A stretch of 7,076 bases of DNA from Clostridia bacterium. GTDB lineage: Bacteria > Aerophobota > Aerophobia > Aerophobales > AE-B3A. A model generated the notes under the pieces. It searched no databases and was not told the origin of the DNA. It saw nothing but the letters and a program-made list of their open reading frames with translations. Below are positions 1,237-6,180 of the stretch, piece after piece (within the stretch, counting starts at the first letter, position 1; each line of letters starts with the position of its first letter). A program made the translations under genes and the position numbers. The stretch is from contig WJOQ01000330.1 of NCBI GenBank assembly GCA_009618505.1, positions 1-7,076 on the forward strand. The letters run 5' to 3'.

Positions 1237-1330
1237 TAGTATATCATATTGCGTATATCGTATGTCGTTTGGTGATAATTCGATTCACGCACTTCTTTTT
1301 CGATATACTACATACGATATACCATATACG
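1237..1330. repeat. Inverted pair of 7-base-period degenerate arrays, rpsD-rpoA gap (locus 1)
   Basis: This array fills most of the 139-nt gap between rpsD and rpoA. On the plus strand the left arm reads in heptads GTATATC, ATATTGC, GTATATC, GTATGTC (1239-1266). The right arm reads CGATATA, CTACATA, CGATATA, CCATATA, CG (1301-1330). The right arm is the left-arm motif in reverse complement: GTATATCGTATGT (1253-1265) pairs perfectly with 1310-1322, and TAGTATATC (1237-1245) with 1302-1310. About 33 nt separate the arms. In the transcript it could form a long hairpin just ahead of the rpoA ribosome site. No ORF or recognisable mobile-element gene is present. The function is unknown. Confidence 0.8.
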
Positions 1331-1351
1331 AATTTCGGTTTACAATTGCCG

Positions 1352-1969
1352 CTACCTTGAATAGTATTCCACTATTAAGTTCAGGTCGATTTCTTGATTC
1401 AACTCTTCTTTTGAAGGAAATCTTTTGATTGTTCCCTTCATAGCCCCTTTATCTATTTCGAGCCATTCCGGGATTACCTTTTCTCGCGAGGCTTCTAGAA
1501 TCTGCTTGACCAAAGCTGATTTTTTGCTCTTCTTGCTAAATTCAATTACGTCTCCCTCTTTCATCAGATAGGAGGCAATATCTACTACCCTACCATTAAC
1601 TAAAAAATGACCATGATTCACTAATTGTCGTCCCTGGGCGCGAGAAAAACTAAAACTAAGTCTATATACCACATTATCTAATCTTCGCTCTAGTAGTCTT
1701 AGAAACTCTTCTCCCGTTATGTTAGGTGACTTTTCTGCCAGGTGGTAGTATCGGCGAAACTGATTTTCCATTATACCATATTCCCATCTGACTCTCTGCT
1801 TTCCTCTAAGTTGTAATCCGTATTGAGAAGTTCTTCTTCTCCGCACAAACCTCTCTGATTTCTTTTTCTCCAGACTACATTTATCTGAATAACACCTTTC
1901 CCCTTTCAAGAAAAGTTTTACTTTTAGCCTGCGGCATTTCTTGCATTTGCTTTCTATATCTCGTGCCAA
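1352..1969 (-). CDS. rpsD: 30S ribosomal protein S4
   Basis: S4 is a primary 16S rRNA-binding protein that starts small-subunit assembly. In E. coli it also represses the alpha operon. The N-terminus MARDIESKCKKCRRLKVKLF continues into LKGERCYSDKC, giving a four-cysteine zinc site (C9, C12, C26, C31) at the positions known from Thermus S4. The S4 RNA-binding domain follows (about residues 95-155: RRLDNVVYRLSFSFSRAQGRQLVNHGHFLVNG), and the protein ends VEYYSR. I place the start at the TTG at 1969 (205 aa, family 200-210), because AAAGGAGG lies 5 nt upstream and the protein then begins with the family's usual MAR. The open frame continues to another TTG at 2017, but those 16 residues are translated from a repeat and have no counterpart in the family. 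TTG initiation of a core ribosomal protein is uncommon. Confidence 0.95.
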   Translation of the reverse strand: MARDIESKCKKCRRLKVKLFLKGERCYSDKCSLEKKKSERFVRRRRTSQYGLQLRGKQRVRWEYGIMENQFRRYYHLAEKSPNITGEEFLRLLERRLDNVVYRLSFSFSRAQGRQLVNHGHFLVNGRVVDIASYLMKEGDVIEFSKKSKKSALVKQILEASREKVIPEWLEIDKGAMKGTIKRFPSKEELNQEIDLNLIVEYYSR

Positions 1970-1974
1970 TAAAT

Positions 1975-1982
1975 CCTCCTTT
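1975..1982 (-). promoter_or_regulatory. Ribosome binding site that decides the rpsD start
   Basis: AAAGGAGG on the minus strand ends 5 nt before the TTG at 1969. It is the strongest Shine-Dalgarno in the rpsK-rpsD gap and begins only 2 nt after the repeat array ends. It fixes the S4 start at 1969, not at the repeat-encoded TTG at 2017. Confidence 0.85.
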
Positions 1983-1984
1983 CT

Positions 1985-2041
1985 CGTATCGTGTATATCG
2001 TATATCGTGATGCGCAATACGCATCACGCACGACGCATCAC
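1985..2041. repeat. 7-base-period degenerate array with central hairpin, rpsK-rpsD gap (locus 2)
   Basis: This array covers 57 of the 76 bases between rpsK and rpsD. Read on the plus strand it divides exactly into eight heptads: CGTATCG, TGTATAT, CGTATAT, CGTGATG, CGCAATA, CGCATCA, CGCACGA, CGCATCA, then C. All but one heptad start with CG. The two halves are inverted and meet without a spacer, giving a perfect 8-bp stem, GTGATGCG (2007-2014) with CGCATCAC (2020-2027), around a 5-nt loop. CGCATCAC recurs at 2034-2041, so an alternative pairing shifted by 14 nt is possible. The array begins 4 nt after the rpsK stop and ends 2 nt before the rpsD Shine-Dalgarno. No T-run follows the stem, so it is not a normal terminator. 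Confidence 0.85.
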
Positions 2042-5114: not shown

Positions 5115-5548
5115 CAAATAACCTCTATTTTTCCCCCTGCTTCCTTTATTTTCCTCTCAGCTTCTTTGGAAAATTGATGAGCCTTTACTTCCAAGGCTAG
5201 ATTAAGCTTTCCTTTACCCAATATCTTAATTTTGCCTTTTTTCTTCACTAGCCCTGTTTTTATCAACAATTCTGGACTAACAACAACATCATCCTTTTGA
5301 AATATATTCAAATCCTTAACATTGACTATTTGGTTTCTCTGTTTAAGGACACTGGTAAAACCTCTTTTGGGAACTCTGCGAGTAAGAGGCATCTGCCCCC
5401 CTTCAAACCAGAGAGCAACTTTCGAACGAGCCTTTTGTCCTTTGTGTCCCCGTGTAGATGTTTTACCATGCCCTGAACTAGGCCCTCTGCCTACTATTTT
5501 CCTTCTATGAGTAGCTCCAGAAGGAGGTGTCAATAACGATGCATTCAT
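5114..5548 (-). CDS. rplO: 50S ribosomal protein L15
   Basis: L15 is a late-assembly large-subunit protein that threads an extended glycine- and arginine-rich N-terminal arm through 23S rRNA. That arm is clear here: VGRGPSSGHGKTSTRGHKGQKARS at about residues 19-42, followed by FEGGQMPLTRRVPKRGF. The C-terminal globular domain includes ILGKGKLNLALEVKAHQFSKEA. The length of 144 aa is normal. The ATG at 5548 overlaps the rpsE stop as ATGA, with AAGGA 7 nt upstream. In many bacteria rpmD (L30) lies between rpsE and rplO. Here the overlap leaves no space for it. The end overlaps secY by one base. Confidence 0.96.
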   Translation of the reverse strand: MNASLLTPPSGATHRRKIVGRGPSSGHGKTSTRGHKGQKARSKVALWFEGGQMPLTRRVPKRGFTSVLKQRNQIVNVKDLNIFQKDDVVVSPELLIKTGLVKKKGKIKILGKGKLNLALEVKAHQFSKEAERKIKEAGGKIEVI

Positions 5549-6054
5549 CGATGGTTCCTTTTTCGTAATCTAATAACCTTATCAGGATCTCTTAGGTTTC
5601 TTAGTCCCTCAATTGTAGCTTTAGCTAGATTAAGAGGGTTATTACTCCGTAAAGACTTGCTCAAGATATCTTTTATTCCAGCTAACTCTACTACCGCTCT
5701 CACTGTCTCTCCAGCAATGACTCCGGTTCCAGAAGAAGCTGGTTTAAGAAGAACTTGCCCTGCTCCATACTTTCCTATTATTTCATGAGGAATAGTATTA
5801 TTTCTAAGAGAAACATAGATCGTATTCCTCTCTGCTTTTTTTCTTCCTTTCCTTATGGCTTCAACTAATTCTTTAGCCTTTCCTAAACCAAGACCTACCT
5901 TACCTTTTCGATTGCCCACCACTACCAAAGCATTAAACCCTATAGTCCGGCCTCCTTTAACTACAGTAAAAACTCTGCGCACCCTTATTAATCTCTCTTC
6001 TAATTGACCGCCCTTTTCCTTTGCATTATTATCTTCTTCTTTTGACCTCTGCAC
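5545..6054 (-). CDS. rpsE: 30S ribosomal protein S5
   Basis: S5 lies at the mRNA entry channel of the small subunit and contributes to decoding accuracy. Family landmarks are the N-terminal dsRNA-binding-like domain, with VVKGGRTIGFNALVVVGNRKGKVGLGLGKAKE (about residues 30-61), and the C-terminal part, with IPHEIIGKYGAGQVLLKPASSGTGVIAG and NPLNLAKATIEGLRNLR. I assign the start to the GTG at 6054. GAGGAG lies 7 nt before it, and the 169-aa product matches the family's usual 160-170. The open frame extends to a TTG at 6153 and an ATG at 6150, adding 32-33 residues. That part is translated largely from an inverted heptad repeat, has no good ribosome site and resembles nothing in S5. The stop overlaps rplO as ATGA. 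Confidence 0.95.
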   Translation of the reverse strand: MQRSKEEDNNAKEKGGQLEERLIRVRRVFTVVKGGRTIGFNALVVVGNRKGKVGLGLGKAKELVEAIRKGRKKAERNTIYVSLRNNTIPHEIIGKYGAGQVLLKPASSGTGVIAGETVRAVVELAGIKDILSKSLRSNNPLNLAKATIEGLRNLRDPDKVIRLRKRNHR

Positions 6055-6061
6055 TGTTAGA

Positions 6062-6067
6062 CTCCTC
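6062..6067 (-). promoter_or_regulatory. Ribosome binding site that decides the rpsE start
   Basis: GAGGAG on the minus strand ends 7 nt before the GTG at 6054. It lies inside the extended open frame, so it is only meaningful if translation starts at 6054. Neither the ATG at 6150 nor the TTG at 6153 has a comparable site upstream, because that stretch is repeat sequence. Confidence 0.8.
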
Positions 6068-6073
6068 AAATTC

Positions 6074-6180
6074 TGTATCTCGATGCTCGATACTAGATAC
6101 TCGTTTTTGGATTGATCCCTTGTTCTTCGTGTTTTTTCTTTAACGAGCATCAAGCATCTAGGATCGAGTATCTAGTAGTC
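6074..6180. repeat. Inverted pair of 7-base-period degenerate arrays, rplR-rpsE gap (locus 3)
   Basis: This array occupies most of the 142-nt gap between rplR and rpsE. On the plus strand the left arm reads TGTATCT, CGATGCT, CGATACT, AGATACT, CG (6074-6103). The right arm reads CGAGCAT, CAAGCAT, CTAGGAT, CGAGTAT, CTAGTAG (6144-6178). In reverse complement the right arm gives the same words (ATACTCG, ATGCTCG and variants). TACTAGATACTCG (6091-6103) pairs perfectly with 6165-6177, and GATGCTCG (6082-6089) with 6144-6151. A 40-nt spacer lies between the arms. The layout matches locus 1 although the word differs. It generates a spurious in-frame extension of S5. The function is unknown. Confidence 0.8.

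What the first reader, a model, noticed from the sequence alone, without database searches (positions are those of the whole stretch)
1237..6180. A family of 7-base-period degenerate inverted arrays occupies exactly the three wide gaps of an otherwise compact operon
Three gaps (rpsD-rpoA, rpsK-rpsD, rplR-rpsE) contain arrays that divide cleanly into heptads, mostly anchored on CG or CT. Every other visible junction is between -11 and +12 nt and has no such array. The heptad word differs by locus (GTATATC-like, CGCATCA/CGTATAT-like, AT(A/G)CT(C/A)G-like), yet each is built as inverted arms. Shared period and architecture with divergent sequence suggests a common generating process, such as slippage or templated copying, and not simple descent from one element. 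Heptanucleotide short tandem repeats are known in filamentous cyanobacteria. These are more degenerate and inverted, and I do not recognise them as a named family.
Basis: partly seen in the sequence, partly recalled or inferred. Interest (0 to 1): 0.72.

Follow-up and report, generated by a model that had tools for sequence, protein, structure and literature searches.

The report
Mobile hairpins built from seven-base words
The odd seven-base repeats between these ribosomal protein genes look like gene-less copies of a widespread mobile hairpin whose full-length versions carry a small four-helix protein gene, which may explain a kind of repeat seen in many bacteria but never accounted for.

Summary
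All three wide gaps of this Ca. Aerophobetes-like ribosomal operon carry period-7 arrays (0 of 5,000 shuffles) arranged as inverted arms or a palindrome.

A 97%-identical relative (G001) is full of such arrays, in about ten word families, many dispersed or nested. Its contig covers two of the three gaps; both carry other words. L001 has all three sites empty.

The key result goes beyond the finding. Genes of the 23S-rRNA-IVP / four-helix-bundle family (PF05635), in many genomes and on plasmids, sit between inverted short-unit arrays, usually heptads, whose word is private to the locus: arms in 54 of 73 loci against 2 of 255 control placements; arms plus period 7 in 40 against 0. In G001 four word families include such a gene (one broken); one is the family of the window's rplR-rpsE element. 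Arrays occur in the ribosomal locus of 9 of 33 genomes with PF05635 and 0 of 34 without at the threshold used.

I read the window's arrays as gene-less derivatives of an IVS-like mobile foldback element inserting at operon junctions. That the IVP protein drives mobility is inferred.

The parts
1231..1351 (-). rpsD-rpoA gap (121 nt) with a heptad foldback element, words CGTATAT/GTATATC; arms 1244-1268 and 1307-1331, 38-nt loop
   Evidence: copy of 79 nt at 90% in L175 (G001:C82) and many shorter matches to the arms; L001 has no gap here
1984..2043 (-). rpsK-rpsD gap: about 58-nt heptad quasi-palindrome, words CGTGATG/TGCGTAT/CGTATAT, almost no loop
   Evidence: copies at 77-93% over 54-96 nt on nine G001 contigs (L188, L184, L177, L170, L175, L178, L116, L110, L181); L007 has another element with the word CGTTGCT at the same junction
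6075..6185 (-). rplR-rpsE gap: heptad foldback element, words CTCGATA/CTCGATG/CTAGATA, loop of about 43 nt
   Evidence: six copies of 97-111 window nt at 79-85% in G001 and two more at 73-75%; same word family as the arms of the PF05635 element G001:C86
268..1230 (-). rpoA (downstream neighbour of the rpsD-rpoA element)
   Evidence: ORF; gene names here come from the finding and my reading of the translations, from no family search; homologues in the same order
1352..1972 (-). rpsD; AGGAGG lies directly after the element (start codon not fixed; the mechanical ORF runs to 2017 into the array)
2046..2447 (-). rpsK
5545..6057 (-). rpsE (start not fixed; the mechanical ORF runs to 6153 into the element)
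6197..6565 (-). rplR

Best explanation
The three arrays are gene-less (non-autonomous) members of a widespread class of mobile foldback element. The full form is about 400-500 nt: an inverted pair of short tandem arrays, usually of 7-nt units, around one gene of the 23S-rRNA-IVP / four-helix-bundle family (PF05635, TIGR02436, S23p). SHOWN by comparison: the architecture, its locus-private words, its position at operon junctions, the co-orientation of the gene with its neighbours, dispersal, nesting, and occupied versus empty sites in relatives. INFERRED: (1) the IVP protein, a homopentamer in its solved relative, recognises the hairpin and promotes mobility, acting on gene-less copies in trans; (2) units are gained and lost by 7-nt slippage and the arms kept alike by hairpin-templated correction, or replaced by insertion of a new element inside the old one, so the word turns over at a fixed site; (3) the transcribed hairpin is tolerated in an essential operon because it lies between the stop codon of one gene and the ribosome-binding site of the next, and is probably cut by RNase III like the 23S rRNA intervening sequences.
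For: PF05635 genes lie between inverted arms: 27 of 30 loci above the 95th and 22 of 30 above the 99th percentile of swapped flanks; second set 20 and 16 of 29, plasmids 9 and 8 of 14; fixed threshold 54 of 73 vs 2 of 255 control placements, with period 7 in at least one flank as well 40 of 73 vs 0 of 255. Best period of the 146 flanks: 7 in 65, 8 in 13, 14 in 10, vs 7 of 304 control segments at period 7. In G001 the PF05635 genes at C80, C59, C86 and C140 (broken) carry arms of the word families CGTTGCT, GTTCATA, CTCGATG and AGCGTAT; the upstream arms of the first three match 17, 14 and 5 places (C86's includes itself) in 80 G001 contigs (one search lists many AGCGTAT arrays). C86 shares the 16-mer CTCGATCCTAGATGCT with the window's rplR-rpsE element. 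A homologue at 81% aa identity (L193, G003) lies elsewhere, between tRNA-Tyr and tRNA-Thr, with CGTATCT words but the same inner junction CTCGTAAGAAAAG. Two Nostoc plasmids carry such elements on opposite sides of one shared gene, each giving the other's empty site. An AGCGTAT element lies inside the C140 PF05635 gene (by eye). Heptad arrays in the r-protein locus: 9 of 33 PF05635-positive genomes (36 arrays in 497 kb) vs 0 of 34 negative (590 kb), Fisher p = 0.0009. Both neighbours are on the strand of the PF05635 gene in 58 of 69 loci, both opposite in 5. Published: the Coxiella 23S IVS has tandem heptameric repeats beside its S23p ORF, a terminal stem and RNase III excision (PMC4990558, passages).
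Against: No experiment shows that IVP moves anything. 19 of 73 PF05635 loci have no inverted arms at the threshold, 33 of 73 lack arms plus period 7, and some arms have units of 8-10 nt. G002 (L001's genome, one of the 34 'negatives') does have heptad elements by eye, below the array threshold, and no PF05635 hit in a 1.0-Mb assembly of unknown completeness, so '0 of 34' depends on the threshold. 24 of 33 PF05635-positive genomes show no array in the r-protein locus. Loci are not all independent (L197 and L207 overlap; L284 and L290 share an operon) and genomes are related. PF01797 control loci also have inverted repeats above the 95th percentile in 13 of 29, so arms alone are not specific; period 7 is (1 of 29 has it in a flank). 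L002, L003, L005 and L006 have wide rpsD-rpoA gaps (72-181 nt) without arrays at the scan used, so that junction is variable anyway, and 'empty' in L001 could be loss. No clear target-site duplication: none at rpsK-rpsD, at most ATG in one Nostoc case. Co-orientation of gene-less elements is weak (10 agree, 3 disagree, p = 0.09). The window's own genome is not held, so its PF05635 genes are inferred from G001. Three of the six long rplR-rpsE copies share outer flanks, so they are one larger repeat and not three insertions.
Confidence: 0.77

Rival explanations
1. The arrays are ordinary heptameric simple sequence repeats that arise and turn over in place by replication slippage; inverted pairing and nearness to PF05635 genes are secondary.
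For: Heptameric SSRs are reported as over-represented in many bacteria (PMC4692102, passages). Within-array divergence and the word changes between window and L007 at a shared junction look like turnover. Most G001 array units were not paired at the score used (79 of 110).
Against: Sites are empty in L001; copies with the same loop are dispersed; nested copies; both arms share one private word (own against swapped flanks); arrays concentrate around one gene family.
Confidence: 0.1
2. IVP is a passenger or an RNA-side partner: the hairpins move by another enzyme (a host transposase, or recombination between arms) and the IVP gene is cargo or a stabiliser.
For: By my knowledge IVP resembles no nuclease, transposase or polymerase; G002 has elements but no PF05635 hit. 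No reverse transcriptase (PF00078) or RAYT (PF01797) was found in G001; DDE transposases and tyrosine or serine recombinases were not tested.
Against: The IVP ORF is the one gene between arms that lie within 180 bp of it on both sides, in many genomes and on plasmids, and presence of PF05635 goes with presence of the arrays.
Confidence: 0.35
3. The hairpins are functional regulatory or processing sites of the ribosomal operon (attenuators, RNase III sites).
For: Strong RNA folds; position between stop codon and ribosome-binding site; co-orientation of the gene-bearing elements with their neighbours.
Against: Absent from the orthologous junctions of L001, and no arrays found by the scan in L002-L006, a scan that also missed the weaker elements of L001; sequence not conserved at 97% flanking identity; similar elements sit in unrelated operons (reading like leuD, acpP, hslV; cas; tRNA).
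Confidence: 0.08
4. REPIN/BIME elements mobilised by RAYT transposases.
For: Short extragenic inverted repeats in many copies.
Against: No PF01797 in G001 or in G009, whose r-protein locus has 10 arrays; of 29 PF01797 loci one has period 7 in a flank at the level used.
Confidence: 0.02

Closest known systems
23S rRNA intervening sequences (IVS) with an S23p/IVP ORF (Leptospira, Coxiella and others; PMC4990558)
   Same: Same protein family, similar size (428 nt in Coxiella), terminal inverted repeats forming a stem, and in Coxiella tandem heptameric repeats beside the ORF (passages read). That paper recalls older proposals that IVSs are mobile elements or remnants of transposition.
   Different: These lie at mRNA operon junctions and not in rRNA, are many per genome, have heptad arms with locus-private words, and have abundant gene-less derivatives. 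RNase III cutting is untested here.
GGGAATC heptameric repeats of Xanthomonas and GGGGA(C/T)T repeats of Nostoc (PMC4692102)
   Same: Mostly intergenic heptad arrays; 70 and 75 cases of convergent inverted pairs in two Xanthomonas genomes. The nearest solved structure to the C80 protein of G001 is XCC0516 of Xanthomonas campestris (2gsc), and 24 of 30 plasmid records hit by the C59 protein are cyanobacterial.
   Different: That paper studies one G-rich word in each and treats it as a G-quadruplex; G001 has many words. In the passages and one section I read no protein gene is linked to the repeats.
TAACTGA direct repeats of Beggiatoaceae (PMC4679880, abstract and outline seen)
   Same: Intergenic heptad arrays, also near ribosomal protein genes; patchy spread across phyla.
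   Different: One word, direct repeats with one indirect case; proposed as sites of translational regulation.
Foldback transposons of eukaryotes (terminal inverted repeats built of short tandem units; recalled)
   Same: Architecture of inverted arms made of tandem subrepeats.
   Different: Eukaryotic, longer units, different genes; analogy only.
REPIN/RAYT systems
   Same: Small inverted extragenic repeats, non-autonomous.
   Different: No RAYT in G001; period 7 in a flank of 1 of 29 RAYT loci.

Membership tests
IVS / IVP (S23p) element | encodes or depends on a PF05635 protein | tested here: inconclusive
   The window elements are gene-less; same-word elements in G001 carry PF05635. Dependence untested.
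IVS / IVP (S23p) element | complementary termini forming a stem around the element | tested here: met
   Window; PF05635 elements and two folds
IVS / IVP (S23p) element | location within 23S (or 16S) rRNA | tested here: not met
   Window elements lie between protein genes; no Rfam match in the window at gathering thresholds
IVS / IVP (S23p) element | excision by RNase III | not testable with these tools
   Reported for Coxiella (PMC4990558); here only the fold is known
Heptameric SSR of bacteria | tandem 7-nt units in excess over other periods, mostly intergenic | tested here: met
   36 of 46 arrays are not mostly inside ORFs of 90 aa or more, which cover 86%
Heptameric SSR of bacteria | one dominant word per genome (as in the Xanthomonas and Beggiatoaceae reports) | tested here: not met
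   About ten word families by eye in G001
REPIN/RAYT | RAYT (PF01797) in the genome | tested here: not met
   0 hits in G001; the window's own genome is not held
MITE of a DDE transposon | target-site duplication | tested here: inconclusive
   None at rpsK-rpsD; possible 3-bp ATG in one Nostoc case
MITE of a DDE transposon | parent transposase with matching ends | not tested
   No transposase families other than PF01797 were searched
Diversity-generating retroelement accessory (Avd) | Avd model above cut-off and a reverse transcriptase | tested here: not met
   29 bits against a cut-off of 80 for two of three proteins, none reported for the third; no PF00078 in G001

The most novel reading that the evidence does not exclude
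PF05635 four-helix-bundle genes flanked by inverted short-unit arrays are a separate class of mobile element, moved without a reverse transcriptase, RAYT or any other known type of transposase, whose gene-less offspring are the main source of heptanucleotide repeats in bacteria (STRRs of cyanobacteria, GGGAATC of Xanthomonas, arrays of candidate phyla), and of which the 23S rRNA IVS is the special case that landed in rRNA.
Probability: 0.4. Interest if true: 0.92.

Novelty: new variant of a known kind. Interest (0 to 1): 0.78.

Why it matters
Heptanucleotide repeats have been recorded in bacteria for decades (dates recalled) without an agreed origin, and the four-helix-bundle IVP family (solved structure; very many annotated genes by my recollection) has no known function (so PMC4990558, passage). 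Finding that the one sits inside the other gives each a testable explanation. It also offers a plain reading of the published habit of 23S_rRNA_IVP genes to turn up in cas loci (PMC3936711, passage): there they may be insertions and not Cas accessories. It exposes fast, locus-by-locus turnover of sequence inside an essential operon at 97% flanking identity.

Tried and rejected
Rfam: no match in the window at gathering thresholds. RAYT as mobiliser: absent from G001 and G009 (9 of 18 genomes have it). Reverse transcriptase as mobiliser: 0 hits in G001, 3 of 18 genomes in all. Strict conservation of the structure as a regulator: the three junctions are empty in L001. Target-site duplication: looked for by eye at the junctions printed and at two Nostoc junctions, none convincing. 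Mirror order of unit variants between arms: compared by eye for one element only, not mirrored, not pursued. Papers: nine searches, seen as listings capped at 12-40 rows with the starts of abstracts, showed no paper linking free-standing PF05635 genes with heptad arms; several had many more papers than rows (1,833), and the library lacks most subscription journals and all bioRxiv preprints, so this is weak evidence that it is unpublished. No structure prediction, fold search or search of the large protein collection was run.
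Full report
WHAT IS THERE. The window is a ribosomal protein operon read on the minus strand (rplF-rplR-rpsE-rplO-secY-adk-infA-rpmJ-rpsM-rpsK-rpsD-rpoA-rplQ; names from the finding and my reading of the ORFs). Three junctions are wide: rplR-rpsE, rpsK-rpsD and rpsD-rpoA. All three hold period-7 arrays; their lag-7 identities are 0.47, 0.64 and 0.52, and 0 of 5,000 dinucleotide shuffles reach these values for any of them. 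Two form inverted arms around a loop, the third a hairpin almost without loop, and they fold better than shuffles as RNA in operon sense (z -2.7, -2.9, -4.7). All other junctions are -11 to +12 nt.

RELATIVES. L007 (Ca. Aerophobetes CSMAG_2520, genome handle G001) is about 97% identical where it aligns. Its contig covers two of the three gaps, rplR-rpsE and rpsK-rpsD, and ends before the third. Both carry heptad elements with other words and other interiors. At rpsK-rpsD the flanks match to window 1990 on one side (1935-1990 at 100%) and from 2040 on the other (2040-2085 at 98%), so the inner part is what differs. L001, at about 75% DNA identity, has 10, 13 and -5 nt at the three junctions: empty sites. 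The other Aerophobetes loci differ: four of them (L002, L003, L005, L006) have rpsD-rpoA gaps of 72-181 nt without arrays at the scan used. By eye L001 has elements of its own at four upstream junctions where L007 also has one, with clearly different words at two of them; the scan missed these, so it is not sensitive to short arrays.

GENOME OF THE RELATIVE. I fetched 80 contigs of G001 by place (473,561 bp; three more). In the 50 unselected ones (299,440 bp) there are 46 arrays at lag 7, 19 at lag 14 and 0-3 at any other lag from 4 to 17. 36 of the 46 are not mostly inside ORFs of 90 aa or more, which cover 86% of the sequence. Sorted by eye there are about ten word families (CGTTGCT, CTCGATA/G, CGTATAT, AGCGTAT, GTTCATA, ATTCACG, CTATGAG, GCAATAC/TGCGTAT, AATTTAG, GTATCTC, CTTTGTC). 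In the 80 contigs 31 of 110 listed units were paired as inverted arms at the score used. Some are nested in one another, as in L174. The window elements have dispersed copies: rplR-rpsE six of 97-111 window nt at 79-85% (three of the six share outer flanks and form one larger repeat, the other three have unrelated flanks) and two more at 73-75%; rpsK-rpsD on nine contigs at 77-93%; rpsD-rpoA one of 79 nt at 90% plus many short matches to its arms.

THE GENE BETWEEN THE ARMS. From a recollection that four-helix-bundle genes keep company with such repeats I searched PF05635 (23S_rRNA_IVP) in 18 genomes: 11 have it, G001 with 5 matches at four places, two of them pieces of one broken gene. The place G001:C86 lies inside an element already on my list, 3858-4309, with the word family of the window's rplR-rpsE element; the two share the 16-mer CTCGATCCTAGATGCT in the arm upstream in transcription sense. 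C80 has CGTTGCT arms and C59 GTTCATA arms. C140 has AGCGTAT arms, and between the two pieces of its gene lies a second AGCGTAT pair of arrays (by eye). The upstream arms of C80, C59 and C86 match 17, 14 and 5 places in the 80 contigs (C86's count includes itself). The three intact proteins are only 28-37% identical to one another. They match TIGR02436 'four helix bundle protein' far above its cut-off, and the one tested, C80, has XCC0516 (2gsc) as nearest solved structure (E = 1.2e-24). That protein is a homopentamer according to PMC4990558 (passage).

IS IT GENERAL? Across 30 PF05635 loci, the flanks within 180 bp pair as inverted arms above the 95th percentile of swapped flanks in 27, and above the 99th in 22. 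In 29 further loci from the search of 49 other genomes 20 pass the 95th and 16 the 99th; on plasmids 9 and 8 of 14. With one fixed threshold 54 of 73 loci have the arms, against 2 of 255 placements of a gene of equal length elsewhere in the same loci; arms plus period 7 in at least one flank in 40 of 73 against 0 of 255. The loci are not all independent (L197 and L207 overlap; L284 and L290 share an operon). The best period of the 146 flanks is 7 in 65, 8 in 13, 14 in 10, 9 or 10 in 4 and 15 in 1, none reaching the level in the rest, against 7 of 304 control segments at period 7. So 7 is the rule but not a law. Words differ from locus to locus, yet the two arms of a locus share theirs. RAYT genes (PF01797), as a control family, also have inverted repeats (13 of 29 above the 95th percentile), but period 7 in a flank in only 1 of 29.

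MOBILITY. Two Nostoc plasmids share an operon at 89-100% identity. In L282 an IVP element lies before the gene for WP_104899637.1, in L279 a different one lies after it, and each plasmid shows the other's site empty. The IVP of G003 (L193), 81% identical to that of C80, lies between tRNA-Tyr and tRNA-Thr with CGTATCT words, whereas C80 lies between a tyrosine-recombinase-like ORF and an hslV-like gene (both named from sequence by recall) with CGTTGCT words; the inner junction CTCGTAAGAAAAG is the same. Same protein line, new place, new word. No clear target-site duplication was seen.

CO-OCCURRENCE. Of 67 genomes with both data (all 80 loci except 12 not asked for after the limit and one not held), heptad arrays appear in the r-protein locus of 9 of 33 with PF05635 and 0 of 34 without: 36 arrays in 497 kb against none in 590 kb, Fisher p = 0.0009. 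The genomes are related to varying degrees, so the p-value is optimistic. Against: G002, one of the 34, has weaker elements in its locus (L001) below the threshold but no PF05635 hit in a 1.0-Mb assembly, and 24 of the 33 positives show no array in this locus.

ORIENTATION. [quoted passage not shown] in 5 both are opposite (crude ORF caller). Among the 12 plasmid loci with annotation the one reversal is Nostoc edaphicum. The upstream arm is G-rich (G>C in 37 of 45), the downstream arm C-rich (27 of 38). For gene-less G001 elements the trend is the same but weak (10 agree, 3 disagree). This fits either selection against antisense insertion or insertion tied to transcription; I cannot separate them.

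MECHANISM. Shown by comparison: a discrete unit of inverted short-unit arms, with or without one IVP gene, occupying operon junctions, dispersed and nested, differing at orthologous sites between close relatives. Inferred: IVP binds the hairpin and promotes movement, also of gene-less copies; slippage in steps of one unit and hairpin-templated repair, or insertion into an existing element, renew the word; the RNA hairpin is cut by RNase III as reported for the 23S IVS. The two PF05635 elements folded whole do close with their arms.

KNOWN WORK. The Coxiella IVS paper reports tandem heptameric repeats of variable number just upstream of S23p, a 28-bp terminal stem and RNase III excision, and recalls earlier proposals of mobility; it judges that S23p is probably not made in vivo and is decaying there (PMC4990558, passages). 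Xanthomonas GGGAATC heptads occur as convergent inverted pairs (PMC4692102, one section and passages). TAACTGA arrays occur in Beggiatoaceae (PMC4679880, abstract and outline). 23S_rRNA_IVP genes were noticed in cas loci (PMC3936711, passage; legend of PMC10910872) and in rRNA insertions of CPR bacteria (PMC11270868, passage). In the listings of nine searches of the held library I found nobody who joined these observations; most subscription journals and bioRxiv are not in it.

VERDICT. The window's arrays are real and are best read as gene-less IVS-like foldback elements. The class is a variant of a known kind (IVS), with a new setting, new anatomy and a likely answer to where many bacterial heptanucleotide repeats come from.

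Noticed in passing
L293 (G001:C140) 1752-2239: A PF05635 gene of the AGCGTAT word family is interrupted by a gene-less AGCGTAT element, i.e. an element inside a relative of its own.
   Followed up: partly
L280, L283, L287 (cyanobacterial plasmids): IVP genes lie inside CRISPR operons (between cas10/cmr2 and cmr3; between cas6 and cas4), with inverted arms around them (L280 without period 7); the published CRISPR link of this family may be insertion.
   Followed up: partly
L296 (G003:C65) 2191-2805: An IVP element sits between tRNA-Tyr and tRNA-Thr, upstream of a gene that reads like EF-Tu.
   Followed up: partly
L252, L259, L274, L289, L198: Arms of some IVP elements are built of 8- or 9-nt units instead of 7 (by eye).
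   Followed up: no
L211 1438-1839 and the ORF 1840-2928: The upstream gene's C-terminus and the IVP C-terminus both read into the heptad arms, so arms can add residues to neighbouring proteins.
   Followed up: no
L222, L223, L231, L239, L243: RAYT (PF01797) genes are flanked by REP-like inverted repeats without heptad period.
   Followed up: no
L003 rpsD-rpoA gap (181 nt) and L006 rpsD-rpoA gap (152 nt): Two other Aerophobetes share a long rpsD-rpoA gap of another kind, similar to each other and without heptads at the scan used.
   Followed up: no
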